DNA of 64,000 nucleotides from Aureococcus anophagefferens (lineage: Eukaryota; Sar; Pelagophyceae; Pelagomonadales; Pelagomonadaceae): positions 1,613,168-1,677,167 of the forward strand of contig NW_008705564.1 of the NCBI RefSeq assembly GCF_000186865.1, given 5' to 3'. Below, in pieces: positions 1 through 62,500 of this stretch. Every line of letters begins with the position of its first letter. Positions within the stretch are counted from its first letter, which is position 1. The translations under genes were made by a program, and so were the position numbers. Below the pieces are notes generated by a model. That model did no database searches and was not told the DNA's origin. It saw nothing but the letters and a program-made list of their open reading frames with translations.

Positions 1-3000
1 GGCGCCGGCGGCGAGGGCGCGCGCGATCTCGTCGGCGGCGGCGTCGTCCTCCGCGGCGCGGCGCAGCGCCTCGAGCTCCGCGCGGAGCGCCGCGGCGTCG
101 TCGCCGCCGCCGCCGGTCGCGAGCGCGCGCTCGAGCGCGTCGACGGCGCCCATGGTCCCGTAGCCGCGGCGCTCCAGGATGCCCTCGCGCGCGTCCGCGA
201 GGGCGTCGCCGATGGCGAGCCAGCGCGCGCTCTCCGCCGCCGTCGCGGCGCCGCCGAGCGCCGACCGCGCGGCCGCGACCGCGGACCGCAGCGCGGCCGC
301 GTCGACCGCGCGGCGGTCCAGCGGGACGGCGCAGGCGCCCGCGCCCGCCGCTTTTCGAATCGGCGGCACGACGGCCGCCACCTCCGCGAAGACGGCGTCC
401 TTGCAGGCCTCGGCGGCGCGCTCCTCCGCGGCGCAGAAGTCGGCCGACACCGCGCCGGCCGCGCGGAGCCGCGCGAGGGCCCCGAGGCCCTCCTCGAGGT
501 CCGCCTTGCTCCGCTCCGCGACGCCGCGCTCCAGGCACCGCTTCGCGACCATGAGGTCGCGCACGCCGCGCACCTGGGCCCGCGCGGCCTCCGCGGCGGC
601 GCTCAGCCGCCCGCCCCGCGTCGCGTCCGGGTCCGCGACCGCGTCCACGGCCTTCAACGCGCGCTCGAGGTCGTCGTAGTGCGCCGCCGCGTCGTCCTTG
701 GCGACCAACGCCTCCAGGATCCCCGCGAGCCGCTCGCCCTCCTCCAGCGCCTTCAGGACGGCGTCGCCGCGCTCGAGCGCCGCCTCGAAGGCCGCGGGCA
801 GGAAGCCGTGGAGGAACGCGACGCTCGCCGCCGCGACCGCGTGCGCCTCCGCCACCGCCGGCCGCAGCGCGCGGATCTCCCGCGGCCGCGCCGCGAGCGC
901 GCCCTCGAGCGTCGCCGCCGCGCGCCCCAGGCGGCGCTTCGTCTTCAACACCAGCGCGCTTCGCGCGACGGCGGCGACGCGGAGCACGGCTTTGGCGTGG
1001 GCCGCGGCGCGCAGCGCCTCGAGCCGCGACGCCGCCGTCGCGCGGTAGAAGACCACGGTCTTGCCGAACGCCACCTGGGTCGCGCCGAAGCAGCGGTCGT
1101 CGGACGCCCGCAGCCCCGCGAGGAGCGCCCGCGCGTGGCCCGACGGCCCGAGCCGCCGCAGCGCCGCGGCGTTCTTCAGGTCTAGCACGAAATAGCGCGT
1201 CGCGAAGCGCTCGTGGGGGCTGCGGAAGGGCCAGCCGCTCTGCTGGATCGTCACCGTCTCGAAGACGCCCGCGTAGGTCAGCTGCTCCAGAACGACGGGC
1301 GACCGGAAGACGCGCTTCACCTTCTCCATGTTCGGCTTCACCTGGGCAGGGTTCAACGTCGCTTCAATGTGAGCGTTCCGCGCGCGTTCCCAGAAGGAAA
1401 GCATGCACGTTTCGAGGGATGATCGCTCGTCCAAGAATCAGCCGAAACGAGTGGAACACGACCGAGCGAGGCGCCTTTTCGCGCCCGTGTCCCGCGCCGG
1501 GCTTCACGCAGCGCACGTAGTGGGGCTCCGTGGCGTTCAACGCGGTCGTCAGCGACGCGAGCTGGCCCCGGAACTTCTTCGACACGGTCGTCTTGCTCCC
1601 GCCGCCGGAGCCCCGGCCGCCGCGCGCGCGCGGCGCGGCAGCGGCGGGCGCGTCGTTCCACGTGAGCAGCGCGGCCGTCCTCTCGTGCGACGAGCCCGCG
1701 ACGCAGCTCGACAGGTCGCCGCTGAGCTGGTCCACGTTCTTCACCAGGAACTGGTCGACGTCGTAGGTCACCAACCCCGCGTAGTGCACGACGCCGAAGG
1801 CCTCGCCCGCGGCGCGCTTGTCGACGCGGAGGCGCGCGTGCGTGTCGTGCTTCTTGCCCACCTTGCTGCTCCAGCTCTTCGCGGAGCCCCGGGGCAGCCG
1901 CGCCTCCTCGTCGAGCATGGCGAGCACGTCGCCCAGGAGCGCGATGACGTCCGAGTTGTCCTTGTACTCGACGCCGTCGCAGGGCACGCCCTCGTCCGCG
2001 TAGAGCCTGAGCTCGAGCTCGAAGATGTCGCGGTTGAACTTGTTCTGGAGCTGCTCGTTCGTCAGGTTGATGCAGAGCTGCTCGAAGGAGTTCGACTCGA
2101 AGATCTCGAACCCGAAGATGTCGAGCACGCCGATGGTCTTCGCCTCGCCGGCGGGCGCCTCCATCTCGCGGTTCACCCGATCCACGGCCCAGTCGAAGAG
2201 CTTCGCGTAGAGCGCCTTCGCCAGCGCGTCGCGCGCGTCGCCCGCGGCGCCCGCCGCCAGCACGACGACGTTGATGGACCCGCGGCCGCCGGCGGAGATG
2301 GTCCGCGTCACGAGCGCCCGGCCGAGGCGCGCCGCGTCGACGTCGAGCCTGGGCAGGACAAGGGTGATTCAACGTCGCTTCAACGTGAGTGTTCCGCGCG
2401 CGCGCGTTACGGAAAACACATCCACGCTTCGAAACCGTTCCGAGAGATGATCGCTCGTCCAAAAATCAGCCGAAACGAGTGGAAAACGGCCGAGATAGGA
2501 GCCTTTGAAGTTGGGAATTTCGCTCTCTTGTGCTGCCCTGCGTCGAGCAGCGTCGCCGCAACTTCGAGGAACGGCGCGGTCCCGTCGACGACTTTGGACG
2601 CGTCCGTGCCGCCGCCCGCCGCCTCGAAGGCGACGTCGCCGAGGTGGAGCACCGCCGCGACGACGCCGTAGATCCACCGCCGCTCCTCCTCGGCGACGTT
2701 CAGCGCGACGGCCGCCTCCAGCACGGCGTCGAGCTCCGCGACGTCGTTGACGCCCGGGATCTCGACGCAGCCGCCGCCGCGCGCGTAGGCGAAGGTCTCG
2801 GCGCCGCGGGACCCGATGCCCAGGCGCGCGCCTAAAGCCGCCGCGGACACCGCGTCGCCGCCGGGGTGCTCCGCGCGCGCGTTCTCGCCGGCTACGCAGT
2901 GGTAGAACGCGTGGTAGCCGCGCTCGCCCGGCGCCTGCCGGACGACGCGCGACTTCTCCAGCAGGTAGTTCGTCGTCTTCGCGCCGACGACGCGGCCGCC

Positions 3001-3690: not shown

Positions 3691-3788
3691 CGTGTGGCCG
3701 CGCCGTCGGGGCAGCCCCAGAGGTTCAAACAAGAGGTAAAAAATAACTGATGCATTTTTTTGGATGCGTATCGACGGGGGCTGTGACG

Positions 3789-5189: not shown

Positions 5190-5233
5190 CACGCGGCGGC
5201 GCCTCGGGGACGTGTCCGTTGGCGACGGGCCAC

Positions 5234-8200
5234 TTAGAGCCTCGCGCGCTGGTAGACGCGCGGCCGCGGCTCGGGCGACCGGGGCCGGTAGCCCCGCGGC
5301 GGCGACCGGCGGTCCGGCGAGTAGTCGCGGCGGCGCGGCGGCGGCGACGGCGGGCGGCGGCGCGGCGGCGGCGACGGCGGGCGGCGGCGCGGCGGCGGCG
5401 ACGGCGGCCGGCGCCGGAGCGGGCTCGGCGACCGGCGGCGCCGCGGCGGCGACGGCTCGCGGAAGCGGTCGTCGAAGCGGCGGTCGTAGTCGCGGGGCCG
5501 CGGCGGCGGCGCGTCGTCGGGCGGCGGCTCGGGCCGCGGCTCGGGCCGCGCGCGCGGCGCGGGCGGCGCGGGCGGCGGCGCGGGCGGCGCGTCCTCGCGC
5601 CTGCGCTTGCGCGGGTCCGCCGGGGCCTCGCGCGGCGAGTCCGCGGGCTTGGGCTCGCTGACGCTCGCCTTGCGCTTCCGCGGGTCCGCGGGCCTGGGCT
5701 CGGCCGCGGCGCCCTTCTTCGCCTTCTTCTTCTTCGGGATGCGCCGCGTGCCGTCCGCCGCGCGCGGGCTCGCGGACCGCGCGGAGTCGTCGTCGCCGGC
5801 GGCCTCCGCGGGCGCCGGGCGCTTGAGGACGCCCTTCTTCGGCGGCGCCGGGAGCGGCGCGGCCTTCCTCGGCGGCGGCGCCTTCGCCGGCGATCGCACG
5901 TACGCCTCCTCGAGCCGCGAGTCCTCGTCGCCGTCGTCGTAGGCGATGTCGTAGGTGCCGTCGCCGTGGACCTTGGCGACGACGCCGGGGTAGAGCGTCC
6001 GCTGGCGGTCGAAGCGCGCGCGGACGCGGTCGCCCGCGGCGAAGCGCGCCGCCGGCGGCGGCGCCTCCTCGGCCGGCGGCGCCGCCTCCTCGGCGGCCGG
6101 CGGCGCCTCGTCGTCCTCGGCCTCGAAGAGGGGCGCCGCCTCGTCGTCCTCGGCCTCGAAGCGGGGCGCCTCGTCGTCCGCGGGCGCGCCGTCGTCGCCC
6201 GACTCGGTGCCCGACGCGACGCCGTCGTTCTCGCTCGCCGTGCGCGAGCCGTCGTCGCCGTGGGGCGCCGCGGCCGCGGCCTCGGCGGCCATGGCCGCGT
6301 CGTCGTCGTCGACGTCGCCGTCGTCGAGGAGCGCCGGCGGCGGCGCGGGCCGCGGCGCGGGCGGCCGCGGCGCGGGCGCGGGCGGCCGCGGCGGCCTCGG
6401 CCGCGCGCGCGCCGCGGCCAGGAGGCGCTTCGTCCACTCGGGCTCGTCGGGCCGCGGCTCCAGCGCCTCGCGGCCGGCGTCGTCGAGCGCGAGGAAGGCG
6501 GCGAAGGACGCCGCGGCCGCGCCCGGCGGCCGCGGCCGCGGCCGCGGCGCGCGGCGCTCCGCGGCGGCGCCCGGCTCGAGGAGCCGCCGCTGGTGCTCCG
6601 CCGGGTCGGCGCCGAAGACGTTCCGCAGCAGGAAGAGGCGCGCCCGCTTCGCGATCTGGAAGGGCTTGGACGACGCGACGGCGTCGCGGCGCCGCCACCA
6701 CGCGTCGACGGCGCGCTCGACGGCGTCGCCGTCCTCGCGGCAGAAGCCCGCGCGGACGACGGCCCGCGTCGCGGGCTCCAGGGCCTTGCCCTCGGGCACG
6801 GACCGCGCGGGGCGCTTCCGAGGACCGCCGGCGACCGCCGGCGGCGCGGCCGCGAGCGCCTGGCTCAGCACGATCTCCTCGCGGTCGCCGAGCACGCCGC
6901 GGCAGTTCGGCGCGCCGCAGCGGCACCGCCGGTCGCTCGACACCTTCGACGGCTGCGCCGCCGTCCGCGCGTCGCCGCTGGACCAGCTGTAGTCGAAGGT
7001 GATCTCCTCGTCTTTCGCGATGTCGCGGAGCGCGGCGATCGCGACGCGCATCTCGCCGTTGACCATCCAGCTCTCGGCCTCGCAGTTCGGCGCGCACGAG
7101 TGGTTCAAGAACCGCGTGAGGCCGCCGTAGCGGCTCGCGTCGATGACGTCGCCCTTGCCCAGCGCCATGAAGTAGGAGTGCTTCTCGTCGCGCGAGTTCC
7201 GCAGCTCCGCGTAGCGCCGCGCCGGCATGACCTGTGTGCGAATCAAATCTTCAACCCGACTTCAATGTGAGCGTATTCGAATGTTTTGACACACTCACTT
7301 CCGCCGTGCTTCGAGAACTCGACGAGAGCAATCGATCCGTCCAAAAATCAGCCGAATCGACTTCGATTTGAGCGAGCTAGAGAATTTCAAAGTTTGGTCG
7401 GGACGTCCCAAACCAGTGGTTGATTTGCACACGGGGCATGACCTCGCCGACGTACTCGCCGAGGACGTTGCCCGCCCGGTGGCGCCGCGTCGCGAAGAGC
7501 CCGAAGCCCTTGACGGCGTCGCCCGTGTCCCGCACCTCGACGCCCGTCGCCGCGTTGATGCGCTGGAGCCGCCGGTTCGCGCAGCGCTTGCCGAGCGAGC
7601 ACGTCAGAGGCGTGCACTCGATGAACGACGCGCGGCTCGGGCACGCCGCGAAGCAGCCGCTGCGCCCCCTGCGCTCCGGGTCGTCGTCGCGGTCGTCGCC
7701 GTCGTCGTCGAGCTCGACGAACTCGCAGGCCTTGTCGCAGCCGCAGCGGCCGCCGTCCGCGTCCTCGACGGTCCGCCAGACGCGCTCCGCGCGGTGCGCG
7801 AAGACGTTCCGCTTCACGAGCTCGAACTCGGCGAAGGCGACGTCCAGGGACCGCACGCCGGCCTTGCGCGCCCGCTCCGCGGCGCGCTCCTTGGCGGCTT
7901 CGACGAGCAGGCCGTAGGGCAGCTCGAAGTCGACGAAGGACGCGGCGGCGCCGTCGTCGCCGGGGAAGAACGCGACGGGCGCGGCCGCGTAGGCCGCGGC
8001 CCGCTTCTCGGGCTTGCGCAGCGTCTTCTTGACGGCGCCGTACTTGGGCAGCGGCAGGCGCACGCGCGCGGGCGCGCGCCTCGTCACCTTCTTCTTCGCC
8101 CTCCCCGTGTCGCGCCACATCGCCTTGTACGCGGACGCGCGCTCGCGGAGGCCCATGTCGTCCTCGTCGAGGATCTCCGTCGGCGTCGACGCGCGCGACG

Positions 8201-8348
8201 ACGCCGTGTCCGCGGGCGGCGCGTCCTCCACGGGCGCGGCGGCGCCGAAGCCCTCGACGTAGTAGTCGCCCTGCTTGGCGTTGGTCTCGTTCGCCTCGTA
8301 GGAGAGGTCGATGTCGTCGGTCCAGTCGCGCTGCTGCGGCTGCGCCAT
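5234..8348 (-). CDS. AWS-SET-postSET histone lysine methyltransferase with Tudor-like domain
   Basis: Nuclear protein methyltransferase of the SET2/ASH1 type, in which the family usually targets H3K36. Two exons, 8348-7443 and 7231-5234 (967 aa), split by a family B introner inside the SET domain. AWS cysteines lie at about 202-262, SET at about 265-385 with LGEYVGE, FLNHSC (343-348) and EEITFDY (377-383), and post-SET CRCGAPNC at about 404-412. After a Pro/Ala/Arg-rich linker, a Tudor-like segment (GDRVRARFD..YPGVVAKV..YDIAYDDGD) sits near residue 700, and the C-terminus is rich in RRR/SP dipeptides as in splicing-associated factors. Splicing of the introner restores GE|VMPARRYAEL, normal SET sequence. 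The start MAQPQQ is chosen; an in-frame ATG at 8594 exists but would encode low-complexity sequence. H3K36 specificity is inference. Confidence 0.92.
7224..7442 (-). mobile_element. Introner B1 (family B) forming the SET gene intron
   Basis: Element 7232-7434 has terminal inverted repeats of the type TGTGTGC...GCACAC followed inward by AAATCAA. It lies between identical 8-bp repeats GGCATGAC at 7224-7231 and 7435-7442. The coding-strand intron is 211 bp, begins GTCATGCC and ends CACACAG. It differs from family A at its ends but shares the internal GGCTGATTTTTGGACG core. Sense orientation. Confidence 0.92.
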
Positions 8349-8594
8349 GGTCGTCGGCGTGCGGCGGTGCTTCAGTGGCGCGCCGCTTGTGTCGCGCGAC
8401 CACCGGTGCTCGCAGAGCAGCGGTTTCAGGAGCTCTCCGAGCTTGGCTCCATCGGTCGTGTCGGTCGCCGCCGTGCCCACGGGTGGGCGCGCCGAGGCCT
8501 GTGCCGAGGCGGCGCGCGCCGGTCGTGGTGGCTCCGCACGAGCTCCGCGCCCGGATGCCTCGTCGGCGCACCCCTTCTTAACGCCACTAGTCAA

Positions 8595-10616: not shown

Positions 10617-10617
10617 T

Positions 10618-12582: not shown

Positions 12583-14391
12583 ATGTCGAGTGCCGGGAAG
12601 CCTGGCATGCTGTGGGCTGCCGCGGCCCTGCTCGCCGTCGCCGTCCGGTGCGCCTTCGTCGAGTTCCCCGTGGAGCGCGCCGACGAGCTGACGATGGCCC
12701 GGTTCAAGGCCGAGTACGCCGACAAGCTGCGGCCCGTGGTGATCCGCGGCAACGACCGGACGCGCGCCGAGGCGGCGCTCTGGAGCGCCGGCGACTTCCG
12801 GGACCGCTGCGGCGCCGGCGAGATCACGCGCTACGTCTCCGACGCGTCGTCGAGCGCCTGGGGCGGCTTCGACATGCGCGGCGAGCGGCGCGTTCCCCTC
12901 GCGTCGTTCTTCGGCGAGGTCGAGCGGTCGAATCGATCCCGGGACATCTACGGCTTCGACTACAACCTCAAGTGCGACTGCGAGGCCTTCGTGGAGCAGA
13001 CGACGATCCTGCCCTACTTCAAGCAGGACGTGACGGCCCAGGCGGAGATGACGGGCGCGGCGCGGCCCGGCGCGGGACGCGGGCGCCCCGCGTCTCCCTC
13101 GGCCGTGTCCCGCTCGTGTCGGCCGCTTGTTGGACGAGCGATCCTCCCTCGGAGCGGCCTCGACGCGCGGACGCTCGCGTCCGGCACGCGCGCGCGTCGC
13201 GGCGACGTCGCATCGTCGCCGTCGCGCGCAGGCGTGGCCCGTGCTCATCGCCGGCATGCCGGGCACGCGGTCCCAGCTCCACGTGGACAACTCGTTCCTG
13301 CCGTTCTGGCTCACGCTCCTCGCCGGGCGCAAGATCTTCCGGGCCGTCGAGCGGGGCCACTGGAGCCCCGCGCTCGTCGACCGGGGCGTCGTCGACAGGG
13401 CAGGGCAAGAGAGCGAAATTCCCAACTTCAAAGGCTCATATCTCGGCCGTTTTCTACTCGTTTCGGCTGATTTTTGGACGAGCGATCATCTCTCGGAACG
13501 GTCTTGAAGCGTGGATGTTTTTTCCGGAACGCGCGCGCGCGGAAAACTCGTGTTGAAGCGACGTTGAATCACCCTTGTCCTGCCCAGGTCGTCGACGACG
13601 ACGGCGACGCCGAGTTCGCGCTCGACTGGTACGACGACGCCGCGGTGCTCGACGCCGTCGGCGGCGCCGACGTCTACTCGTCCGTGCTCGAGCCCGGCGA
13701 TTCCGTCTACATCCCCGTGGCGGCGCTCCACGGCGGCTCGAACGTCGGCGACGCCCCCGCGCTCGCGATCACGGGCAACTACCACGACGAGGCGCACCAC
13801 GCCATCCTCGTGGACGTCTACTGCGAGGGCAAGGTCCGACGTCTGATGCGCCAGTCGAAGAAGCTCACGCGCATCAAGGCCATGGTCAAGGACCCGTCGT
13901 GCCTCTTCTGGGCGGGCGCGCTCGGCGACGTCGAACCGACGACGGACCGGGGCCCCGTCGACGCGCCCGCGCCGCTCGCGGACGTCGTCTACCCGGACCC
14001 CTGGTTCTGCCGGTCCTACGGGCCCCGCGCCTGGCGCCGCGGCTGCAACGTGACGCGGACGCGCTGCCCGCTCGAGGAGGAGGGGGACGACGACGACGAC
14101 GACGACGAGAGCGACTTCGTCGTCGACGAGAATCGCGACGGCGTGCTCAGCCGCCAGGAGCTGTCCCTCAAGTTCGCCCAGGTGTCGCCGCGCTACCTCG
14201 AGGGCGTGCCCGACGCGCGCCTGACCTGGGGCCTCCTCGCGCGCTGGGTCGCGGCCGAGGTCGAGGCCATCTGGCCCGCGGGCGCGGCGCGGCCGACCGC
14301 CGCGGCCATCGACGCCGCCATCTTCGCCCGCTTCTTCTTCGAGGACGGCACGGAGCGGCCCGTCGGCGACTTCAACCCGGGCGAACTCTAA
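12583..14391 (+). CDS. Secretory-pathway JmjC-domain hydroxylase with EF-hand
   Basis: Fe(II)/2-oxoglutarate oxygenase-like protein. Three exons, 12583-13059, 13232-13387 and 13588-14391 (478 aa), separated by two introners. A signal peptide (MLWAAAALLAVAVRCAF) opens the protein. The JmjC cupin follows: first metal triad H176-x-D178 in QLHVDNS, a beta segment PGDSVYIP, and a distal His in ALHGGSN (about 259). After an acidic Asp run, an EF-hand loop DENRDGVLSRQE lies near 391-402. The H-x-D motif sits in exon 2 and the distal His in exon 3, so the enzyme is intact only if both introners are spliced. The signal peptide argues for a lumenal or extracellular hydroxylase rather than a histone demethylase. 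The substrate is unknown. Confidence 0.86.
13060..13239 (+). mobile_element. Introner A3 (short, strongly diverged family A) in the JmjC gene
   Basis: Element 13068-13231 is flanked by GCGCGGCC (13060-13067) and GCGTGGCC (13232-13239), an 8-bp duplication with one mismatch. The 172-bp intron begins GC and ends GCGCGCAG. The family A core is still readable as TTGTTGGACGAGCGATCCTCCCTCGG. Most differences from consensus are changes to G or C. Splicing gives MTGA|AWPVLIAG in frame. Sense orientation. It is probably the oldest copy in the window. Confidence 0.82.
13388..13595 (+). mobile_element. Introner A4 (family A) in the JmjC gene
   Basis: A 192-bp element (13396-13587) between identical repeats GTCGTCGA at 13388-13395 and 13588-13595. 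The intron of 200 bp begins with GT of the left repeat and ends CCCAG of the element. Splicing restores LVDRG|VVDDDGD. Sense orientation. Only a 156-bp exon separates it from introner A3. Confidence 0.95.
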
Positions 14392-15818: not shown

Positions 15819-17291
15819 CTACGCCCGCTCCGCGGCCAGCCGGCAGGAGCCGCCGAAGATCGTGTAGCTCGACGCGGCCTCGACGACGCCCAGCACCGAG
15901 TAGTAGGTGCCGAAGACGCAGAGCAGGCCGCCGGCGACGACGAACGCCAGGAACGCCCACCGGCGCGGCCGCGAGTGCTCGCCCGCGAAGAGCGCGAGGT
16001 GGCACGCGAACGGCGCCGCGTAGCACCTGGGCAGCAAAAGGGTGATTCAACGACGCTTCAACGTGAGTGTTCCCCGAAAAGCATCAACGCTTCGAGACCG
16101 TTCCGAGAGATGATCGCTCGTCCAAAAATCAGCCAAAATCAGCCAAAACGAGTGGAAAACGACCGAGATATGAGCCTTTGAAGTTGGGAATTTCGCACCC
16201 TTTTGCTGCCCCGCGTAGCACAGCGCCGGCCCCGACACGGCGCCCGCCAAGGCCTGCATGTCGCCCGCGCCCGCGCCGCGCAGCGCCGCGGCGACGACGA
16301 GCTCCGACGCCAGGAACGCCGCGCGGAACAGGAAGCTCTTCGTCCGCGGCGCGGACTCGCGTAACCCCGGCCACCGCGCCGCCGCCGCGCGTTCGATGCC
16401 CAGCACCATGAACAAATTGTTCTCCACCGTCGACACGAGGAACGACAACGCCATGAGAAACGCCGTCACGTGCGTCGCGGCGAGGTTCGGGGGAAAGTTC
16501 CGCAGGATGTCGCCCGCGGCGTCGCCGCCGAAGAGCCAGAACCCCGCGAGGCCGCACGCCGCGTACAACAAAAAGACGGGCAGGAAGGCGCAGCGGACGG
16601 CCCTGGCGAACTGGTCCGGGTGCTTCATCTCGGCGATGAGCTCCGGGAAGACGCCCGCGCCGGCCAGCGCGAACGCCATCGACACGCCGCCCCGGCTCGC
16701 GCGGCCGAAGCCAGCGGTCTCGTAGTCGACGCCCGGCTCCGGCCCGCCCTGGACGTAGGCCACCCAGAACAAGCTCAGCACGCCGAGCACGATGACGGCG
16801 TTGCTGAACAGCGCCGCGGGCGCCATCGCGTGGTAGTCCGGCAGCTGGATTAAAGGCACGATCAAAACGTACGTGAGGAACATGAAGCGCTGCTCGCACC
16901 ACGTCGTGAGCACGCCGCTCTCCGTCCAGTACTCCGCCGTGATGACGAAATTATAGACGTTCGTCAGCCAGTAGGAGCCGTACTGGAGCCACAGCGTCGC
17001 GGCGCCCCACCGGCCCCCGAACGCCGCGCGGACGACCTTCGGAAAGCTCGTGAGCTCGGGCTTGCGCGCGCAGATCTCGCCGAGGGCGACGCCGGCCTCG
17101 ACGTTGATCCACGTGCTGCCCACGAGGAAGACGCTGCCGAGCACCCAGCCCATCTGGCCGAAGCAGTAGGGCACGCCGTAGGGGTAGCAGATGAGCGTGA
17201 ACACGTTGAGCACCGTGGACCGCACGGTCGCGCGCCGCGGATGCTGCGGCGGCGGCGCCGAGCCGCCGCCGGGCAGCAGCGCGTCCTCCAT
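15819..17291 (-). CDS. Amino acid/auxin permease-type (AAAP) transporter
   Basis: Multi-pass membrane carrier of 425 aa in two exons, 17291-16222 and 16026-15819, joined across introner A5 with exact frame (1278 nt). It opens with a short cytosolic N-terminus and TVLNVFTLICYPYGVPYCFGQMGW. Further membrane segments include FLTYVLIVPLIQL, AVIVLGVLSLFWVAYV, AFALAGAGVFPEL, FLPVFLLYAACGLAGFWLF and VVAGGLLCVFGTYYSV. The AGAGVFPEL..MKHP and FGGDAAGDIL positions resemble AAAP proteins (family Aa_trans). The substrate is not predictable; amino acids are the family default. The start MEDALLPGG is chosen over an in-frame ATG at 17375. Confidence 0.86.
16019..16221 (-). mobile_element. Introner A5 (family A) in the AAAP transporter gene
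   Basis: Element 16027-16213 (187 bp) between identical repeats CGTAGCAC at 16019-16026 and 16214-16221. The coding-strand intron starts GTGCTACG and ends CTGCCCAG, 195 bp. Splicing rebuilds GPALCYAAPFACH. It carries a local duplication of AGCCAAAATC within the core (16131-16148) not seen in other copies. Sense orientation. Confidence 0.94.
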
Positions 17292-23350: not shown

Positions 23351-24930
23351 ATGTCGTCGAAGAAGGCGCCGCCGACCCTGCCGGCGCTGTCCGCCGGCGT
23401 CCTCGGCGCCGTCTTCGACACGCTCGACGAGGCCAAGGCCGGGACGCTGGCGACGAGCGAGCTCAAGGCCGTGGGCTTCAACACGGAGCAGATGCTGCCC
23501 GGCGGCGGCGACCTGAGTCGGGCGGCCTTCGTCGGCGAGATCGGGAAGATGCTCGCGAAGATGCCCGGCGCGTCGGAGAAAATCCTCAAGGAGTCCATCT
23601 CCCTCGTCGGCCGCATCTTCCGCCTCCGGCACCAGTCGCAGCTCAAAGACGCGCGGGACAGGGCCGTCGAGGCCGCGGCGGCCGAGGGCCGCCAGGCCCT
23701 GGAATCCCTCAAGGAGGCGGAGGAGGCGCTGGCGACGGCGCGGGCCGGCGAGGGCGCCGCCGAGGCGCGGAGCCGGCAGCTGGCGTCGGAGCTCGAGGAC
23801 GCGCAGGCGGCCCGGGAGCGGACCGCGGGCGACCTCGCGGACGCGCTGGGCCAGAACGAGGCCCTCGCCGGCGCCGTCGAGGAGGCCAAGGCCGGCGGCG
23901 ACGCCCCGCAGCTCGCGAGCGCCCTCGCCGCCGCCGAGGCGGCGGCGAAGCGCGCCGCGGGCGACCTCGGCGCCGCGCTCGCGGCCTCCGAGAAGACGGC
24001 GCGCCTGCTCGCCGCCGCCGAGGAGGCGCTCGCCGCGCGGTCCGGCGACCTGGCACGGCGCGACGCGGACCTGGCCGCGGCGCGCGGGGCGCTGGCGACG
24101 AAGGACGGCGAGCTCGCGCTCGCCGTCGCCGCCGCGGAGCGCGCGTCGGGCGACGGCGCCGCGGCGCGAAAGGCGGAGATCGCGAAACGCGACGCCGAGG
24201 CCGCGCGGCTCCTCGCCGAGGCGCGGACGCACGCGGCGCGCTCCGACGACCACGCCAAGGCCGCCGCGGCCGCGTCCCAGAAGGCGACGAAGCTCGAGTT
24301 CCAGCTGGGCGACGCGCTCGCCAGGGCAGGAAAAGGGTGATTCAAGTTCGCTTCAACATGAGTGTTCCGCGCGCGCGCGTTCCGGAAAAAGCATCCACGC
24401 GTCGAGAGCGCTCCGAGGGATGATCGCTCGTCCCAAAATCAGCCGAAACGAGTGGAAAATGACCGAGATAGGAGCCTCCAAAGTTGGGAATTTCGCACCC
24501 TTTTCCTGCCCAGGCGCTCGCGGACAAGGCCGCGGCGGAGCGCGCCACGGGCGCCGCGGAGCGGCAGCTCGCGGAGGCCCGCGACGCGGCGACGGCCCAC
24601 GACGAGATCTTCAAGGTCGCCCTCGCGGGCGTCATGACGGGCCTCGGGCTCGCCGAGGGCGTCCTCGACTCGTCGGAGCTGCTCGCCGCGGGCGCGGACC
24701 CGGACGTCATCAAGGCCATCGACCACAGCGCGTCGGGCGTCGTCCACCCCGACACCTTCGTCGAGGTCCTGAGCCAGGCCGTCCACTACCAGGGGCCGGA
24801 CCAGTCCAAGGCCATGCTCCGCGACTACACGGCCGTCGCCGTCACCGTCCTCGAGAACCGCCAGGCGTCCGCGAGGGAGAAGGAGGCGAAGAAGAGCGCC
24901 ATCTGGGACCACCTCGTCTGCGCCGAGTAG
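23351..24930 (+). CDS. Long coiled-coil protein with globular ends
   Basis: Exons 23351-24313 and 24514-24930 (459 aa) are joined across introner A6. The N-terminal 110 residues look like degenerate EF-hand helices (AVFDTLDEAKAGTLATSELKAVG, AAFVGEIGKMLAKM). Residues about 115-345 are a nearly uninterrupted Ala/Glu/Arg heptad coiled coil (EEALATARAGEGAAEARSR and similar). The C-terminal part (FKVALAGVMTGLGLAEG, ADPDVIKAIDHSASG) is compact. Splicing restores LGDALADKAAAER. No family assignment; a structural or cytoskeletal role is plausible from the coiled coil only. Confidence 0.75.
24314..24521 (-). mobile_element. Introner A6 (family A, antisense) in the coiled-coil gene
   Basis: A 192-bp element (24322-24513) between identical repeats GCGCTCGC at 24314-24321 and 24514-24521. 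The 200-bp intron starts GC and ends CCCAG. The core reads antisense to the gene, yet the downstream end still supplies AG. Splicing is in frame. Confidence 0.94.
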
Positions 24931-33911: not shown

Positions 33912-35714
33912 GAGGCCCACATCTTGATCGTGCGGTCCTTGGACCCGGACGCGGCGGACGCGCCGTTGGGCGCCCAGTCGACGGCGAAGACCTCGTCGTA
34001 GTGGCCCGGGAGCGTCTCCAGCGCCGCGGCGAACTTGCGCGTCGACGAGACCTTGTGCTTCGCCTCGGACGCGGGCACGGCGTCGTCGGCGACGTTCCAG
34101 ACCTTGAGCGTCGAGTCCTTGGACGCGGACACGAGCAGCCGCGAGTCCGGCGAGAAGGCCAGCGCGTAGACCGCGCCGACGTGGCCCGTGAACGTCGCGA
34201 GGAACGCGCCCGTGCGGCCGTGCCAGAGCTTGACCTTCTTGTCGAAGGACGCCGACGCGAACTTGCGCGCGTCCGGCGCGAACTGGATCGCGTTCACGGG
34301 CTGCTGGTGGCCCGTCAGGCGCGCCTTGGGCGTCCGCTTCTTGTTCGACGCGTCGGCCTTGAGCGACGTCCAAAACAGGAGCGTCGCGTCGTCGGAGCCG
34401 GACACGAGGCGCTCCGCGTTCGCCGGCCCGCCGTTCGCGTCGACGAAGGCGTCGTACTTCGCCCGCGCCGCCGCCTCCACGGCCGCCAGCGACGTCGCCT
34501 TGAAGGCCTCCCTGCCCGACTTGTGGTCGAACGGGCCCGTGCGGCACACGAACGCCGACGCGAGCGCTAGGGCGTTCACGCGGTGGCCGTGGCCCTGGAG
34601 CGTCGCGTCCAGCGCCAGGGACCCCCATTTCCCGTCCTCGCGGCAGCGCCAGACCTTGACGGTGCGGTCCCGGGACGCGCTGTAGAGCGCGCCGTCGCCG
34701 GCCCACGCGAGCGCCTCCACCTGTGTGCAAATCAACCAGTGAGCTGGGACGTCGGGGCCAAACTTGAGAATTCTCTAGCTCGGTCAAATCAAAGTCGATT
34801 CGGCTGATTTTTGGACGAATCGATCGCTCTCGTCGAGTTCTCGAAGCCCAGCCGAAGAGCTCGTGTCAAAACATTCGAATACGCTCACATTGAAGTCGGG
34901 TTGAAGATTTGGTTTCGGCACAGGCCTCCACGGAATCCGTGTGGCCCGTCAGCGACGCGATCATGGACCCGGTCCGCGTGTTCCAGATCTTCACCGACGC
35001 GTCCTTGGACGTGGACGCGAGCACCTCGCAGGCCTCGGCGCTGGCGGGCTGGGGCAGGTGCGCGGGGCTCCACGCCAGCGCCGTGATCCACTTGGAATGC
35101 TTTTTCAGCGTCTTGAGGCTCGCGCCCGTCTTCGGGTCCCAGACGCGCACCTCGCCGCTGCGGTCGCCGGACGCGACCTTGGACGCGTCGGGCGCCCAGG
35201 CCAGGCAGAGGACGTGGTGGCGGTGGCCGCCGCACGTCGCGCGGGGGGTCTTGGACAGCGCGTCCCAGAGGCGCACCGTCGCGTCGCCGCCGCCGGACGC
35301 GAGCGACTTGCCGTCGGGCGCGAAGCCCACGTGGAGCACGGCGTCGCTGTGGCCCGGCAGCGTCTCCGCGCAGCGGCTCACGCGGCGCACGCGGAAGACG
35401 CTCAGCGGCTCGTACGTGACCGCGAGCGCGGTCTCGCCCGAGAAGCCCGGCGTCTGCTCCGCGTACTCGCCGAGCGTGCCGGCGACGGCGGTCTGGCCGT
35501 CGGCGTAGAAGGCGTAGGGCGTCGACGGGCCGTCCTGGCCCTCGGCCTTCTTCAAAGCGTGCACGAGCTTCTCCAGCTCCGCCGGGGAGCTCGACATGGG
35601 CACCTCCATGGCCGCGCCGAGCGGGTCGCCGGCCGTGCTCTGGAGCTGGATGACGACGCTCGACGGCATGGTCTTCTGCTGCTTTTTCGGCGGTTGCTCG
35701 ACCATGGCGCTCAT
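33908..35714 (-). CDS. NLE1: Notchless homolog, WD40 ribosome-assembly factor (NLE1/Rsa4)
   Basis: Exons 35714-34932 and 34720-33908 (531 aa) joined across introner B2. The N-terminal NLE ubiquitin-like domain (VVIQLQSTAGDPLG...STPYAFYADGQTAVAGTL) is followed by WD40 blades: TLPGHSDAVLHVGFAPDG, GGHRHHVLCLAWAPDAS, LKKHSKWITALAWSP, LTGHTDSVEALAWAGDG, LTGHQQPVNAIQFAPD, FTGHVGAVYALAFSPDS and LPGHYDEVFAVDWAPNG. This combination is diagnostic of NLE1/Rsa4, which works with the AAA ATPase Rea1/midasin in pre-60S maturation. The DSVEALAW blade is rebuilt only by splicing. MVEQ (35705) is an alternative start. Confidence 0.95.
34713..34931 (+). mobile_element. Introner B2 (family B, antisense) in the NLE1 gene
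   Basis: Element 34721-34923 between identical repeats GCCTCCAC at 34713-34720 and 34924-34931. The coding-strand intron of 211 bp begins GTGGAGGC and ends GCACACAG. It has the same length as B1 but lies in the opposite orientation relative to its gene. Ends CTGTGTGCAAATC and GGTTTCGGCACAG form the inverted repeat, somewhat diverged on one side. Confidence 0.93.
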
Positions 35715-38168: not shown

Positions 38169-39595
38169 TCACTCCTTATTGTAGCTGTCGATCATGGAGA
38201 AGACGGAGGACCGGCGCTTCGCGGGCGTGGGCCCGAGCTTGGCGCCGAGCCGGAGCCGCGGCTGCTCGGCGATGACGTACATCTCGAGCGTCGACGGGAG
38301 GACCTCCGCGGCCCACTGGAGCGGCGGCAGGGGCGTCTGGCGGGCCTCGATGTCGGGCACCTTCACGGCGCACTCGAAGGACGTCGCCGGGTGGTAGGCC
38401 TTGGCGACGAAGCCGCCGCCGCCGCGGCCCTTGCGGGAGATGACCGTGATCAGCCACGGCGAGTTCGGGCCGTTGGGATTCGTCGGGTCCGGCCCCAGGT
38501 CCTCGCGGATCACGGAGACGACGATCTCCTCGCGCGGCGGCTCCGCCGCCGCCTGGGCCTTCTTGCGCCGCGCGATGCGGCCGCGCGCGCGCCGCGCGCC
38601 CGCCGCCGCGGCCGCGGCCGCGCCCTCGGCGCGCGATCGGCCCGTGCCGTCGCCGTCGCGCGCGTCCTCCGCCGCCGCGGCGGCGTCGGCGGCGGCCAGC
38701 GCCGCGCGCACCCAGCCGTCGACCTTCTTGCAGGGCCCCGCGGCTCTCGCGGGAAGCGCCTTCCAGTGGAGGTCGTCCGCCGCGGAATCGAGGAACCTGG
38801 GCAGCAAAAGGGTGCGAAATTCCCAACTTCAAAGGCTCCTATCTCGGTCGTTTTCCGCTCGTTTCGGCTGATTTTTGGACGAGCGATCATCTCTCGGAGC
38901 GCTCTCGAAGCGTGGGTGCTGTTTCCGAAACGCGCGCGCGCGGAACAATCACGTTGAAGCGACGTTGAATCACCCTTTTGCTGCCCTGCGAGGAACGTTC
39001 GGATCGCTGCGCGCTTGAAGGCCGGGCAGGCCGCCGGGTCGAAGGCGAGCATGGCCTCGCGCAGCGTCGACGCGTCGGCGTCGACGCGGGCGACGTAGGT
39101 CGGCCAGCGCGCGTCCGACGGGATGTCGTCGTCGACGAGGCAGAGCAGCGACGCGCCGACCATCGCCAGCGCCTCGCTCGGCGCGTCGAGGTCCGCGAGG
39201 GCCGCGAGGTCCGCGGCCTTGACGCAGCCCCCCGCGGCGCGCGCCGACGCCGCCGCCGCCGCGGCCGCGTCGGCCGCGGGGCCCGAGGCCGGCGGCGGCG
39301 CGGGCGGCGGCGGCGCGGGCCGCGGCCGCGGCGGCGCGCGCAGCATGGGCCGCAGCTTCGGCCGCTGCGCCTTGGCCGGGCACGTCGCGATGCGGTAGCA
39401 GGCCTGGGTCGTCGTCATGGACTTGCCGAAGTCCGCCTTCCAGACGGGCGTCGAGTCCATCATCACCAATTGCTCTTTGGCGTCGGCGTACCACCAGCTG
39501 CTGGCCAGCGTCGTCTGGCCGGGCGTCGCCGGCGGGGCGTACATGGGGCTCGACGCCGACTCGGGCATGCGCGAGCACGCGCGCAGCGGGCCCAT
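38169..39595 (-). CDS. Uncharacterised protein with a dynein-stalk-like helical segment
   Basis: Exons 39595-38997 and 38796-38169 (408 aa) joined across introner A7. After a Pro/Ala linker, the central segment VKAADLAALADLDAPSEALAMV..LLCLVDD..WPTYVARV..LREAMLAFDPAACP...AIRTFLDSA...VDGWVRAAL follows the order of conserved positions seen around the stalk of dynein heavy chains. No AAA ATPase module is present, so this is not a motor. The C-terminus contains a basic ARRARGRIARRKKAQ stretch and a beta-rich block (EEIVVSVIREDLG, PWLITVISRKG, FECAVKVPD). Splicing restores AIRTFLDSA. Assignment by pattern only. Confidence 0.7.
38789..38996 (+). mobile_element. Introner A7 (family A, antisense)
   Basis: A 192-bp element (38797-38988) between identical repeats CGAGGAAC at 38789-38796 and 38989-38996. 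The coding-strand intron of 200 bp begins GTTCCTCG and ends CTGCCCAG. The core reads antisense to the host gene. It is nearly identical by eye to introner A9 at 62 kb. Confidence 0.95.
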
Positions 39596-42777: not shown

Positions 42778-45700
42778 ATGCGGTGGTTGTACGTCGCCCT
42801 CGCGGCGGCGGCCGCGGCGTACGTGCCTCGGCACGCGACCTTCAAACAACCAACGCTCCGGCGCGCGTCGCCGCGCCTGACCCCCGTCGCCGTGCTCGCC
42901 GCCGAGCCGCAGGCGCAGACGCTCCTCCCGTCGCACCCCGAGTTCGTGCGCGGGCGGCTCCCCAACGGCCTCGAGTACGTGATCCTGCCGAACGCGTCGC
43001 CCGCGGGCCGCTTCGAGGCGCACCTCGAGGTCTTCGCGGGCTCGGCGGACGAGAACGACGACCAGCAGGGCATGGCGCACCTGGTCGAGCACGTCGCGTA
43101 CATGGGCTCTAGGAAGCGCGAGCGCCTCTTCGGCACGGGGTCGCAGACCAACGCCTACACGGACTTCCACCACACGGTCTTCTACGCGTGCTGCCCGCGC
43201 GAGGCGCCCGGCGGCGGCGACGGCGGCCTCGGCGGGCTGCTCGGGAACCGCGGCGGCGCGTCGATGCTGCCGCGCGCGCTCGACGCGCTGTGCGAGGTGC
43301 TCCAGGCCCAGTTCGCGCCGGCGCGCGTCGAGAAGGAGCGGGCCGCCGTGCTCAGCGAGATGTCCATGGTCAACACGATCGAGTACCGGGTCGAGTGCGG
43401 GGCAGGACAAGAGAGCGAAATTCCCAACTTCAAAGGCTCCTTTCTCGGCCGTTTTCCACTCGTTTCGGCTGATTTTTGGACGAGCGATCATCTCTCGGAA
43501 CGCTCTCGAAGCGTGGATGCTTTTTCCGGAACGCGCGCGCGCGCGGAACACTCACGTTGGAGCGACGTTGAATCACTCTTGTGCTGCCCAGGTCGAGTGC
43601 CAGATCCTGCGGACGCTGCACGCGGAGAACTCGCTCGCGCGGCGCTTCCCCATCGGCCTCGAGGACCAGATCAAGGCCTGGACGACGGAGGACGTCATGG
43701 CCTACCACCGCGAGCACTACCGGCCCGACAACTGCCTCCTCTACGTCGTCGGCGACGTGCGACCGCCGGAGGTCGAGGCCGCGATCGCCAAGGCGTTCGC
43801 GGGCGTGCCCAAGCCCCGGGACGCGCGGGCGACGCCCCGGTCCTTGAAGGCCCAGTCGCGCCACTTCCCGCCCATCGTCCACACGTGGTCCGGCGGGCGC
43901 CTCGACGGCAAGGCCGACGTCGTGATTAGAGGGGAGGGCGAGGACCGGCTCTTGGAGCTCGACGAGGCCAAGTATTTACTACCATTGGACGTGCCGCCGA
44001 CGCCCCACCCGGACACGCAGGAGCCCGTGCGGGCCCACGTCTTCCAGCACGAGCTGCTCCAGCAGTTCAGCTTCCACCTCTTCGCCAAAAGGCCCGTCGA
44101 GGCGATCACGACGTTGGAAGCGCACCGGCTCATGACCGCGCGGCGCATCGTGCTCAGCGCGCTGCAGGTGCGCCTCAACGTCATGGCGCGGACGGAGCCT
44201 TTGTTCTCCTTCGTCGAGTTCCAGTACCTCGACAGCGCGCGCGAGGCGTGCGCCGTGTGCTCGCTCGACATGAACGGCGACGCCGCGCGGTGGGAGGACG
44301 CGGTCGCGGCCGCGGTGCGCGAGACGAAGCGCATGGGCCAGTACGGCCTGACTCAGGGCGAGCTGGAAAGATTCGGCGCGTCGCTGGTGACGGACTCGGA
44401 GCAGCTCGCGGCCATGGGCGACCAGCTCGCGCACGGCGACCAGCTCACGCACTTGATGGAGACGGTGTCGTGCGCGCACACGTTCATGGACCCCGCGGCG
44501 GCCCACGAGGCGACGTTGATCGCCGTGGAGTCCCTCACTTTAGAAGAGGTGAACGCGGAGGCGCAGCTCCTCATGCCCCACGTCGTCGACTTTGGGGACG
44601 CGGCCGCGCCGTCGCCGTCGGCGATGATCGCGTGCGCGCCGGCGACGCTGAGCGACGGCACGCCCGTGGTCATCGACACGGACCGCCTCCTCGCCGTCGC
44701 CGCGAAAGCAGCCGCCGAGGAGCTCGAGCCCGAGCCGGAGCTCGAGATCCCCGCGGAGCTCATGGGCCGCGGCGACGTCGCGGACCTGCTGCCCGACCCG
44801 TTGGTCCCCGTCGACTTCGGGGACCTCGACCCCTACGACGCCGAGGCGGCGAAGAACCTGGGCGTGCGCGTCTCCAAGCTCGCCAACGGCGCGCGGGTCA
44901 TGGTCAAGGCGCTGCCCCACGAGGCGCAGCGCGGCGCGTTGCGGCTGACGTGCGCCGGCGGCCGCGCGGGCGAGGCCAAGCTCGGGTCCGCGGCGCTCGG
45001 CGCGCGCGCGGTCCAGGAGGGCGGCGCCTTCGAGCCCTGGAGCCGCGAGCAGGTCGAGCTCTTCTGCGTCGACCGCTTAATCATGGTCGAGGTCACCTGC
45101 GGCGAGGACTACATCACCATCGACTTTGGGTTCCCCACGCCCCCCCCCAAGACGGGCGGCTGCGACGGCGTCGAGGCCGCGCTCCAGCTCGTCCACAAGA
45201 TCCTCATGCCCGGCGCCTTCAAGTGGGAGCCCGACGCCCTCCAGCGGGCGCGCCTCGGGCTCCAGCAGCAGACGGAGACGCACCTGTATTCCATGGAGGG
45301 CGCCGCGCAGGAGGCGCTGCTCGCGCAATTGTTGGGCGACGACGCGCGGTTCCTGTCGCTGCCCAACGACGCCGCCGACGCGCTGAGTTTGGAGGACGTG
45401 CGGTCCTGCGTCATGGCCCAGCTCGACCCGGCGAACGTCGAGATCAGCGTCGTCGGCGACGTCGACGCGGAGCGGACCGAGGCGCTCGCGCACGAGTACG
45501 TCGGCTCCGTGCCGTCCAAGAACCCGAACCCCGCCACCGACGCGCCCCCGGGCGCGACGGCGACGACGCTCCCGCCGAACCCCGACGCGCCCCTGCGGGT
45601 CCACGTCTCCGATAGCGACCCGCGCGCGGTCGCGTACATCGCGGGCGCGGCGCCGAACCGCCTCGGCGTTTTAGCGGACGGCCGGTCGCTCGTGGAGGCG

Positions 45701-52899: not shown

Positions 52900-53100
52900 G
52901 GTCGACGAGGGGGCGCAGGCGGGTAGGAGGTAACGTTGCCGTTCTTGTTGCAGGCCTCGTTGAACGCTCGCTGAGGTCGATTTTCAGGCGCTGCTTCGGC
53001 GGCCCGACCTCGAGCTTTCGCGCCCTGCCGACGCCGTCGCTTGCCCTCCCTCGCCGCCAGCTTTCGGCGCTCCATACGACCGTTCGCCGCGCCCCGACGA

Positions 53101-53633: not shown

Positions 53634-53728
53634 AGCGCGCCGCCGGCGTAACGCGAGTCCCCTTGTACACTCGACCCCCCGGGGAGCTCGCTTCGTCGAT
53701 GCCCCGGCCCTCGAGGAGGAACGCTCGC

Positions 53729-55829: not shown

Positions 55830-55955
55830 CGTGCCAGACGCTGGTCTCGCGGGCTCGAGGCTTGTGGCAATGCCTCATCGACTTCAGCATCTCCTAGCCT
55901 GCTCGAGCAGCCAGAGTGCAGCGTCTCCGGCGCCCGCGCCGTCGTGCTCGCAGCC

Positions 55956-56534: not shown

Positions 56535-56557
56535 TTATAAACCACGCTCCTGGAGGC

Positions 56558-59500: not shown

Positions 59501-62500
59501 CGCGGGCGGATCCGCGGGCCGGGGTCCCGGCCGCCGCGCGGGCGCGGACCCCGGGCGGCCCGGCGCGGCGCCCGGCCGGCGGGCCGCGGGCGCGGACCCG
59601 GGCCGCGCCGCCGGGCGCTCGCCGGCCTTGGCGCCGGGCAGGGGCCGCGGCGCCGCCAGCGGCAGCTTCGGATCGTGGGCGCGCACGGAGAAGGTCACGG
59701 GCGGCTCGTCGTCGGTCTTCGCGTGGCGGCTCCAGAGCGCGCGCGCCGGCGCGGTGTGGAGCGGCACGCGCGGCCCCGCGCGCTCGCGCGGCGGCTTCGC
59801 CGCGCGCCGCGGCGCCGCGAACGACGCGTCGTACCACTCGGCGTAGCGCCCGCCCGCGTCCTCGGGCTTCTTCGCGACGGGCGCCGGCGGGTCGTTCGGT
59901 GTTTCCGCCCGGAGCTCCGGCGGGTGCTCGCGCTCGTTCAACGAGTAGATGTGCATGCGGTGCTTCGCGCCCGCGTGGCGCGACAGGTTCGCGAGCACGG
60001 CCGACGCCGCCGTGCGCACGAGCGGGTCGCCGTCCGTCTCGTTCGACAGGTGGACCAGATCCTTGAGGCCCGCGCGCGTCACGAGCGGCACCGCGGCGCG
60101 GCTCACCGCGCAGTTCATCAGCACGTAGGCCGCCCGGAGCGCGACGTCCGGGTCGTCGCCCGCGGCGATCCTCACGAGCCGCGCCGCGCCCGTCTTCGCC
60201 ACGGGCAGGCGGCTCGCGTCGTCGCGCGCCGTGAGCTCCTGGAGCACGAAGAGCGCGCTCCCCCGCATCGCCGGCCGCGCGAGCGCGTCGACGCAGCGCT
60301 TCACGAGCGGCGTCTCGCCCACGAACTTGTCGTTCGACGCCGCGAGGCGGAGGAGCAGCCAGCAGCACGACGCCGCGAGCCGCTCCCGGGCCGCGGCGCC
60401 GTCGAACGCGCGCGGCCCCTCGCCGCCGAGCCGCAGCGAGCTCCGCCGCTTCGGGGGGGGTTCCGGGGCGGCGACGACGTCCCGCGCCGCCGCGGCCGGG
60501 TCGTAGGACGCCAACGCTTCCAGCCGCGCCGCGAGCCGCGGCGCGTCCTCGACGGGCACGGCCGCGCTCGCGTCGACGTCGCCGTCGTCGTCGACGTCCG
60601 CGAGCTGCCAGAAGGCGTCGACGAGCTCCGCGCGGTGCGGCGCGAGGGCCGCGTCGTCGCGCTCGTCGTCGCGCGGCGCCGTCGCGGCGAGGAGCGCCCT
60701 GAGGAGCGCGCCGCTCCCGACGGCCCTGGCGGCGCCCTCGCGGAGGCCCAGCGCGAGGCGCTTCAGCGACGAGCACGCCGCGCGGCAGACGACGAGGAGC
60801 ACGCGGCCGTCGCGGCTCGTCGTCGAGCACCGCTTCGCGGCCGCCGCGGCCACGCGGCCCAGCAGCTCGACGGCGCCCGACGCGACGAGCGGCTCCAGGA
60901 TCGTCGTGTCGCCGAAGCTCAGCACGCGGTGGAGCGCCAGCAGGGAGAAGACGAAGACGTGCGCCGCGAGGCCCGCGCGCGCGGGCGTCACCAGGCACCG
61001 CGCGTCCTCCGCGGATCCGACGCACGCCGCGAGCGCCGCGACGTGAAAAGGCTCCCAGGTCTTGACGCGCGTCGTGCCCTCGCCGCAGCGCCAGCGGTCG
61101 CGGCAGCACCTACGGATGGTTCGGTCCCGTGCCCGCCCGCACCGCAGGACGCCGAACAAGCACAGGATCTGCAGCACGCCCGCGAGCGGCGCGGCGACGG
61201 CCGGGTCCGCCCGCGCCACGAGGTCCGCGAGCGCGTCGAAGTGGGGTTCCCCGAGAAACGCGGCGCGCGCGACGTCCTCCTCGGCGAGCGCGGCGCGCAG
61301 CAGCACGTGGGCGCAGGCGGCCTGCGCGCGCGCGTTGTGGCCGAGCCTCGCGACCGTGGCCAGCGTCGTCCGCAGGTGGTCGCCGTCGGCCGCGCGGCCC
61401 GCGCCCTCGAAGTGGGCCAGCGCGCCGTGGAGGCAGAAGACGGCGTCGTCGCGGTCCGCGACGTCGTCGCCGGCGGCGAGGAGCGCGGCGATGCAGGCCT
61501 TCGTGGCTTCCTCGAAGCGCGCGTCGTCGCCCGTGTACGCGCCGTCGTCGAGCGACGCGTGGCGCAGCAGGCTCAGCGCGTGCGCCGCCGTCGCCGCGAC
61601 CCGGAGCGTGCCCCGCGGCACGGCCGCGTCCCCCAGGCTCCGGAGGCAGAGCCGCGCGGCGCCGAGCGCGGCGCGCGCGACGTCGCCCGCGCCGCCGCCG
61701 TCGCCCCGCGACCGCTCGCGGACTCGCTCGCGCGCGGCGAGCTGCGCCGTCGCCGCGGCGAGCTTCGCGACGGCCCCGTGGCGCGGCTCCTCCATGGCCT
61801 CGCGCAGCAGGCGCAGGCCTACGGTTGTGTGTTTGTGTCCTTTGCTCTCGAGAAACCGTCCCGGGACGCCGCGAGAAACCGGCCGCGCCGAGCGCCGCGC
61901 GCCGCGCGGCCTTGGACGACGACGCCGCGTACCAGACGAGCTCGACGGCCGTCGCGACAACACCAACATAATCGCCCTCCGTGGCCTCGTAGCCGTGGGC
62001 GTCGACGCGGTCCAGCGGGTGGTGCTCCAGCAGCTGGCGCGCGCCGCTGCGCTCGCCGCAGCGCGACACGGCGTCCACGGCCTCGTCGGCGACGAAGTCG
62101 CGCACGGCGACGCGCTTCCGCGCGAGCGCCGCGAGGCAGCCGAGGACGACGCGGACGACGGCGATGGGCAGGTTCCGGAAGTCGGCGCGGTCCGCGTGGG
62201 ACGCGCGCGCGAGCACGTCCGCCTGGGCAGCAAAAGGGTGCGAAATTCCCAACTTCAAAGGCTCCTATCTCGGTCGTTTTCCGCTCGTTTCGGCTGATTT
62301 TTGGACGAGCGATCATCTCTCGGAGCGCTCTCGAAGCATAGGTGCTGTTTCCGAAACGCGCGCGCGCGGAACACTCACGTTGAAGCGACGTTGAATCACC
62401 CTTTTGCTGCCCTGGCGTCCGCGAGCCGCGCGGGGAGGCCCGCGGAAAGCGCGGCGGTCTCGGCGACCTTGGACATCTCCGCCAGCTTCCAGACGCAGCG

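What the first reader, a model, noticed from the sequence alone, without database searches (positions are those of the whole stretch)
1334..62422. Eleven introner elements, each a spliceosomal intron bounded by an 8-bp target duplication
Seen directly: copies at 1334-1507, 2341-2548, 7224-7442, 13060-13239, 13388-13595, 16019-16221, 24314-24521, 34713-34931, 38789-38996, 43390-43599 and 62215-62422. Each has inverted-repeat ends and an 8-bp flanking repeat, nine exact and two with one mismatch. In every case the intron starts at the first base of the upstream repeat and ends at the last base of the element, so splicing restores the pre-insertion sequence and keeps the frame. In the recognised families (myosin, SET, NLE1, M16) the restored residues are the conserved ones. 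Introners that co-opt a target duplication for one splice site are established in Aureococcus and Micromonas; that these copies belong to that system is inference from identical logic.
Basis: partly seen in the sequence, partly recalled or inferred. Interest (0 to 1): 0.95.

Follow-up and report, generated by a model that had tools for sequence, protein, structure and literature searches.

The report
Known jumping introns of Aureococcus

Summary
All 11 copies lie where stated, each flanked by an 8-bp repeat (9 exact, 2 with one mismatch; chance of an exact pair 0.00016). On the assigned strand each intron reads G[T/C]…AG, the GY from the upstream repeat, the AG from the element (7 GT, 4 GC). 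Five junctions align without a gap to solved homologues. The organism can be named: the JmjC gene is identical, outside two gene-model errors at its two introners, to AURANDRAFT_62191 of Aureococcus anophagefferens, where such introners are already described. Added here: 3,790 core matches genome-wide; 117 of 117 unique environmental junctions, from the 120 listed of 595 proteins, whose repeat begins GTN or GCN against a 22% background; relatives with uninterrupted sites, a new insertion, and a family-1 element at the very base that holds family 2 here; and linked ends in family 1 (318 CAG..CAG, 7 with AG at both ends, 0 CAG..CTG). Four transposase families gave no match. RNA splicing itself was not testable.

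The parts
1334..1507 (-). family-1 introner (158 bp, right end worn) with 8-bp repeats GGCTTCAC; intron 1342-1507 on minus strand, GT-AG, in a myosin motor gene
   Evidence: no gap at the junction against myosin-5A
2341..2548 (-). family-1 introner (192 bp), repeats CGTCGAGC; intron 2349-2548, GC-AG, same myosin gene
   Evidence: no gap at the junction
7224..7442 (-). family-2 introner (203 bp), repeats GGCATGAC; intron 7232-7442, GT-AG, in an AWS-SET (ASH1L/SETD2-like) gene
   Evidence: no gap at the junction
13060..13239 (+). divergent, probably old family-1-like introner (164 bp), repeats GCGCGGCC/GCGTGGCC; intron 13060-13231, GC-AG, in a JmjC gene
   Evidence: 46.3 bits, bias 24.1; P0242 reads through the site
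13388..13595 (+). family-1 introner (192 bp), repeats GTCGTCGA; intron 13388-13587, GT-AG, same JmjC gene
   Evidence: P0126, P0243 and P0242 read straight through
16019..16221 (-). family-1 introner (187 bp), repeats CGTAGCAC; intron 16027-16221, GT-AG, in an Aa_trans transporter gene
24314..24521 (+). family-1 introner (192 bp, right-end-AG form), repeats GCGCTCGC; intron 24314-24513, GC-AG; gene without a Pfam match
34713..34931 (-). family-2 introner (203 bp), repeats GTGGAGGC on gene strand; intron 34721-34931, GT-AG, in NLE1 (Notchless)
   Evidence: P0001 uninterrupted; P0008 has a family-1 start at the same base
38789..38996 (-). family-1 introner (192 bp, right-end-AG form), repeats GTTCCTCG on gene strand; intron 38797-38996, GT-AG; gene without a Pfam match
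43390..43599 (+). family-1 introner (194 bp), repeats GTCGAGTG; intron 43390-43591, GT-AG, in an M16 peptidase gene
   Evidence: (Peptidase_M16 profile spans the junction)
62215..62422 (-). family-1 introner (192 bp, right-end-AG form), repeats GCGGACGC/GCGGACGT on gene strand; intron 62223-62422, GC-AG; gene without a Pfam match

Best explanation
These are the introners of Aureococcus anophagefferens: short non-autonomous DNA transposons (158-203 bp here) that insert into exons and duplicate 8 bp of target. Each element brings a 3' splice site, a terminal repeat ending CAG. The 5' splice site is co-opted from the duplicated target when the 8-mer starts GT or GC on the gene strand. Splicing from the first base of the upstream duplicate to the last base of the element then restores the pre-insertion mRNA exactly. 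Shown: element, repeats, splice-site geometry, species, uninterrupted and occupied forms in relatives. Inferred: that the RNA is spliced at these junctions, and that a transposase acting in trans moved the elements.
For: Geometry in 11 of 11 copies, against chance. GY at the donor end of the repeat in 21 of 21 family-1 copies whose repeats the script resolved (of 23), against 6 of 21 at the other end of the same repeats. 117 of 117 unique environmental read-through junctions have Val or Ala (GTN/GCN) as first codon of the repeat; V+A is 21.9% in the exon parts and 18-29% at the seven other positions -1 to -8. No gap at five junctions aligned to solved homologues. Species identity through P0240. 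Uninterrupted relatives: P0001, 531 aa, equals the spliced length; P0126, P0243, P0242. 3,790 core matches within two mismatches genome-wide, 0 in the reversed-pattern control.
Against: No RNA reads were available. Uninterrupted database proteins could be empty alleles or cDNA. Three of 11 copies sit in genes without homology support. One near-consensus family-1 copy outside the window (L010:6834) has no clear repeat. Four transposase families gave no match; two of the four rang in none of the tool's 14 control genomes, so absence is not shown. The A. anophagefferens models P0240, P0241 and P0247 do not use these splice sites at 13060 and 13388; I read that as model error because P0242, and at 13388 also P0126 and P0243, agree with the repeat-boundary splice.
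Confidence: 0.96

Rival explanations
1. Ordinary MITE-like repeats that sit in coding regions or between genes and are not spliced; the GT/AG match is coincidence of a GC-rich genome.
For: The window is 72% GC and full of long open frames on both strands, so frame arguments alone are weak; three copies have no homology support.
Against: GY at the donor end 21 of 21 against 6 of 21 at the other end; 117 of 117 environmental junctions; protein homology needs the segment removed at the exact base; 0 copies of the intact CAG..CTG form, which would lack AG on either strand (other AG-less end forms were not counted).
Confidence: 0.02
2. Introns that spread by reverse splicing of RNA, with the 8-bp repeats produced by repair of staggered breaks.
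For: The copies are introns and share sequence.
Against: Each window copy lies between 8-bp direct repeats and most have inverted ends; the interior occurs in both orientations relative to the intron, which a spliced RNA would not give; the first 8 bases of the intron are target DNA that differs from site to site.
Confidence: 0.02
3. For the linked ends of family 1: handedness arises by inversion of the interior between the terminal repeats, not by loss or gain of AG at single ends.
For: The two ends are tightly linked (318 CAG..CAG, 7 CTG..CAG, 0 CAG..CTG), and right-end-AG copies need three changes on the 23-copy tree, each with both ends changing together.
Against: Tree support is weak (14 of 20 inner branches open; the well supported branches force only one change). 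The 7 copies with AG at both ends could be an intermediate by single changes.
Confidence: 0.3

Closest known systems
Introner elements of Aureococcus anophagefferens (Huff et al. 2016, Nature; not held, recalled; seen second-hand in passages of PMC9860276, PMC10228655, PMC7789003, PMC9481584)
   Same: Same species; introns of about 210 bp (PMC9481584); direct repeats and terminal inverted repeats (PMC7789003); co-opted splice sites and DNA transposition in both orientations (PMC10228655).
   Different: Nothing found that contradicts it. I could not compare sequence families, nor check whether the linked ends or two-family site reuse are in that paper.
Introners of Symbiodinium microadriaticum (PMC9860276, Fig. 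2B legend)
   Same: Carry the 3' splice site, co-opt the 5' one from the target duplication, have terminal repeats.
   Different: 4-bp duplications; unrelated host.
Family-4 introners of an Aureococcus sp. environmental genome (PMC9860276, Fig. 2F legend)
   Same: Genus; 8-bp duplication.
   Different: Carry both splice sites and add 12 bp to the transcript; the copies here leave the length unchanged.
hAT-type MITEs (recalled)
   Same: 8-bp duplications; the non-AG end of family 1 reads C[A/G]GGG, like recalled hAT ends.
   Different: No hAT dimerisation domain matched in the genome (uninformative control); no autonomous partner identified.

Membership tests
Aureococcus anophagefferens introners | host is A. 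anophagefferens | tested here: met
One gene was used; the SSU rRNA search did not complete
Aureococcus anophagefferens introners | short, high-copy element with inverted ends and no coding capacity for a transposase | tested here: met
   158-203 bp, 3,790 core matches; ends worn in some copies
Aureococcus anophagefferens introners | 8-bp target-site duplication | tested here: met
   9 exact and 2 one-mismatch of 11; in the wider set of 23 family-1 copies L010:6834 shows no clear repeat and L014:4451 needed reading by eye
Aureococcus anophagefferens introners | element carries one splice site, the other comes from the duplicated target | tested here: met
   11 of 11, 21 of 21 against 6 of 21, 117 of 117
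Aureococcus anophagefferens introners | perfect splicing from RNA | not testable with these tools
   no reads; only indirect support from uninterrupted relatives
Aureococcus anophagefferens introners | insertion between nucleosomes | not tested
   no nucleosome data; the exon between introns 13060 and 13388 is 156 nt, one case only
hAT superfamily | hAT transposase in the genome | tested here: inconclusive
   PF05699 0 matches at E <= 0.001, but the control rang nowhere
hAT superfamily | 8-bp duplication | tested here: met
   shared with several other superfamilies (recalled)

The most novel reading that the evidence does not exclude
Family-1 introners are two-faced: one terminus is kept for the transposase (C[A/G]GGG) and the other for the spliceosome (…CCCAG). 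Selection removes copies with no AG end, and two-AG copies stay rare because they move poorly. Left- and right-handed forms arise from one another repeatedly, and favoured exon sites are struck again by different families (the NLE1 site holds family 2 in this genome and family 1 in a relative). If right, the conflict between moving and splicing can be read from two base pairs.
Probability: 0.3. Interest if true: 0.5.

Novelty: already known. Interest (0 to 1): 0.33.

Why it matters
Introners are a documented genome-scale source of new introns (PMC9860276), and a reading of raw sequence found them at the exact base. The additions are modest but useful: presence/absence variation visible in environmental proteins, one exact site with two families, database gene models that depart from the repeat-boundary splice at two of these introns, and a genome-wide linkage of the two ends that makes a trade-off between transposition and splicing testable. 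The transposase that moves them was not identified here.

Tried and rejected
Mobilising transposase: PF05699 (hAT), PF18758 (KDZ), PF10551 (MULE) and PF12762 (DDE_Tnp_IS1595) gave 0 matches at E <= 0.001 in the genome, searched in six frames without regard to introns. For the first two the control rang nowhere; for the others it rang in 3 and 1 of 14 genomes. The RAG-like transposon of this species (PMC9435367 passages) has 5-bp duplications and CACACCC-type ends, so it does not fit.

Viruses as carriers: three viral-contig scans gave 0, 0 and 1 hit. The hit, L029, scores 9.7 and 10.7 bits against the two profiles and is 39% GC, a chance 19-mer. The tool says that records of the window's genome or one very near it may be left out.

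Rfam (gathering scores) and tRNA scans of the window gave nothing. Chrysophaeum taylorii was considered and dropped (71 Mbp). first picked a wrong frame for the JmjC gene, so its blastp output is meaningless; its tblastn part and searches use the right frame. The listing shows no minus-strand rows in the first 3 Mb of one contig; I take that for a listing artefact, since one search lists minus-strand copies there.
Full report
WHAT WAS CHECKED. All 11 segments are present at the stated coordinates. In each, the first and last 8 bases repeat one another, exactly in 9 and with one mismatch in 2. Random pairs at the same spacings in the window match exactly in 0.016% and within one mismatch in 0.21% of 200,000 draws. 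On the assigned strand all 11 introns run from the first base of the upstream repeat (GT in 7, GC in 4) to AG at the element's end.

STRAND AND FRAME. For eight copies the strand is fixed by homology and not by the repeats: myosin (1334, 2341), AWS-SET (7224), JmjC (13060, 13388), Aa_trans (16019), WD40/NLE1 (34713) and M16 (43390) (the JmjC hit scores 22.7 bits, below Pfam's 24-bit cut-off, and that gene is better supported). All eight obey the rule, where GY is 20% of dinucleotides. The printed PDB alignments have no gap at the junction for 1334, 2341, 7224, 34713 and 43390. In one search the printed partner is a WD-40 repeat protein (2ymu); human Notchless 8rl2 covers residues 1-320 in the table but was not printed. 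In one search the stretch over the junction is weak by itself (20.6 bits, i-Evalue 0.0023), but the Pfam Peptidase_M16 match spans it. For 24314, 38789 and 62215 there is no such support. Ten of 11 introns are not a multiple of three.

WHICH ORGANISM. The window is one stretch of a 49.05 Mb genome in 86 contigs. The spliced JmjC protein returned 9 proteins at E <= 0.001, among them AURANDRAFT_62191 (P0240), JL720_5968 (P0241) and JL721_10286 (P0247) of Aureococcus anophagefferens. P0240 is identical to the window protein except at two places, both introners: at 13060 the model lacks ten residues, apparently by an earlier donor, and at 13388 it has 24 extra residues read from the intron. P0242 (70% identity) reads straight through both sites as the repeat-boundary splice predicts.

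FAMILIES AND NUMBERS. Profiles of the 192-bp and 203-bp families find 7 and 5 copies above 100 bits in 200 kb sampled at even steps along one contig, plus one cut off at a stretch's end, and share a core. A 19-base core within two mismatches occurs 3,790 times in the genome and 0 times reversed, about one per 13 kb; the window has 11 copies in 64 kb.

INDEPENDENT TESTS OF CO-OPTION. (a) Of 23 non-redundant family-1 copies (window, sample, and the 8 loci picked by similarity to copy 2341), the script resolved repeats in 21. The donor end is GY in 21 of 21 (10 GT, 11 GC), the other end of the same repeats in 6 of 21. The two left out were read by eye: both also give GT, one (L010:6834) with no clear repeat. 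All 9 family-2 copies above 100 bits have a GY at an AG-bearing end. (b) The read-through tail of P0008 found 595 proteins in which a family-1 introner has been translated; the best 120 were listed and all 120 used. They gave 120 junctions, 117 with unique upstream residues; one further alignment, a second piece of P0121, was dropped. The residue that would be the first codon of the repeat is Val or Ala, that is GTN or GCN, in 117 of 117 (65 V, 52 A). The other positions from -1 to -8 give 18-29%, the exon background 21.9%. The set was not chosen on that residue; it samples only the frame in which the element stays open.

FORMS IN RELATIVES. NLE1: P0001 (531 aa, as long as the spliced window protein, 519 of 531 identical) is uninterrupted, by an empty site or because it is cDNA. 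P0008 matches the window in 261 of its first 264 residues, then runs …TDSVEA|RAAKESEIPNF, which is what GTGGAGGC followed by a family-1 start encodes. In the window the same GTGGAGGC is followed by a family-2 element. So two families appear at the same base in close relatives. The DNA of P0008 was not seen, its downstream repeat is unknown, and a chimeric contig is not excluded, although the cluster has four members. JmjC: P0126 reads through the 13388 site (159 of 161 residues identical) and is interrupted by a family-1 element after GDVEP (window about 13930-13937), where the window has none. Same-site parallel intron gain has a precedent in Daphnia, by another mechanism (PMC4202315, passages).

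LINKED ENDS. On the intron strand most intact family-1 copies read CAGGGCAG…CTGCCCAG or CGGGGCAG…CTGCCCAG, and the interior may lie in either orientation. With one gapped pattern varied only at the two terminal positions, the genome holds 318 CAG..CAG, 7 CTG..CAG (AG both ways) and 0 CAG..CTG (no AG). The fourth class, CTG..CTG, was not counted with that pattern, nor were ends with C or G at the second position. Left ends with CTG number 491 and with CAG 273 under another pattern. In a tree of 23 copies the right-AG form needs three changes, but 14 of 20 inner branches are open and the well supported ones force only one. Family 2 differs: 6 of 9 copies have AG at both ends. My reading, a trade-off between a transposase end and a splice end, is a hypothesis.

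COMPARISON WITH PRINT. Papers in the library credit Huff et al. 2016 with introners in this species that co-opt splice sites, insert in both orientations (PMC10228655 passages) and prefer nucleosome linkers (PMC9860276 passages, abstract and one section). They have direct and terminal inverted repeats (PMC7789003 passages) and a characteristic length of about 210 bp (PMC9481584 passages). The Huff paper is not held; I recall, but did not see, that each element carries one splice site and takes the other from the duplicated target. Whether the linked ends or two-family site reuse are in print I cannot say: the listings of searches, of which I opened only the papers named here, show none, but Huff 2016 and most subscription papers are not in the library.

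VERDICT. Observation confirmed, interpretation supported, system already known, in the same species.

Noticed in passing
window 13060-13595: The database model AURANDRAFT_62191 departs from the repeat-boundary splice at both introners of this gene (lacks 10 residues, has 24 extra); JL720_5968 and JL721_10286 differ again. Introner-bearing genes of this species may often be mis-modelled; only this gene was compared.
   Followed up: partly
window 34713-34931 (NLE1): The same insertion base holds family 2 here and, judged from protein P0008, family 1 in a close relative; an uninterrupted form (P0001) is also in the database.
   Followed up: yes
window 13930-13937: A relative (P0126) carries a family-1 introner at this position in the JmjC gene; the window does not.
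   Followed up: yes
family-1 copies of the window and sampled loci: GC donors are as common as GT donors (11 and 10 of 21), although GC dinucleotides are about three times as frequent as GT on the gene strands examined (14.9% and 5.1%).
   Followed up: partly
database proteins P0008, P0121-P0239: 595 proteins, 120 of them listed, contain a translated family-1 introner; the listed ones come from environmental collections and could serve as markers of intron presence or absence in wild populations.
   Followed up: partly
L007:304-505, L017:1862-2064 and 8332-8534, window 34713-34931: Family-2 introners often have AG at both ends and fit splicing in either orientation (6 of 9 copies).
   Followed up: partly
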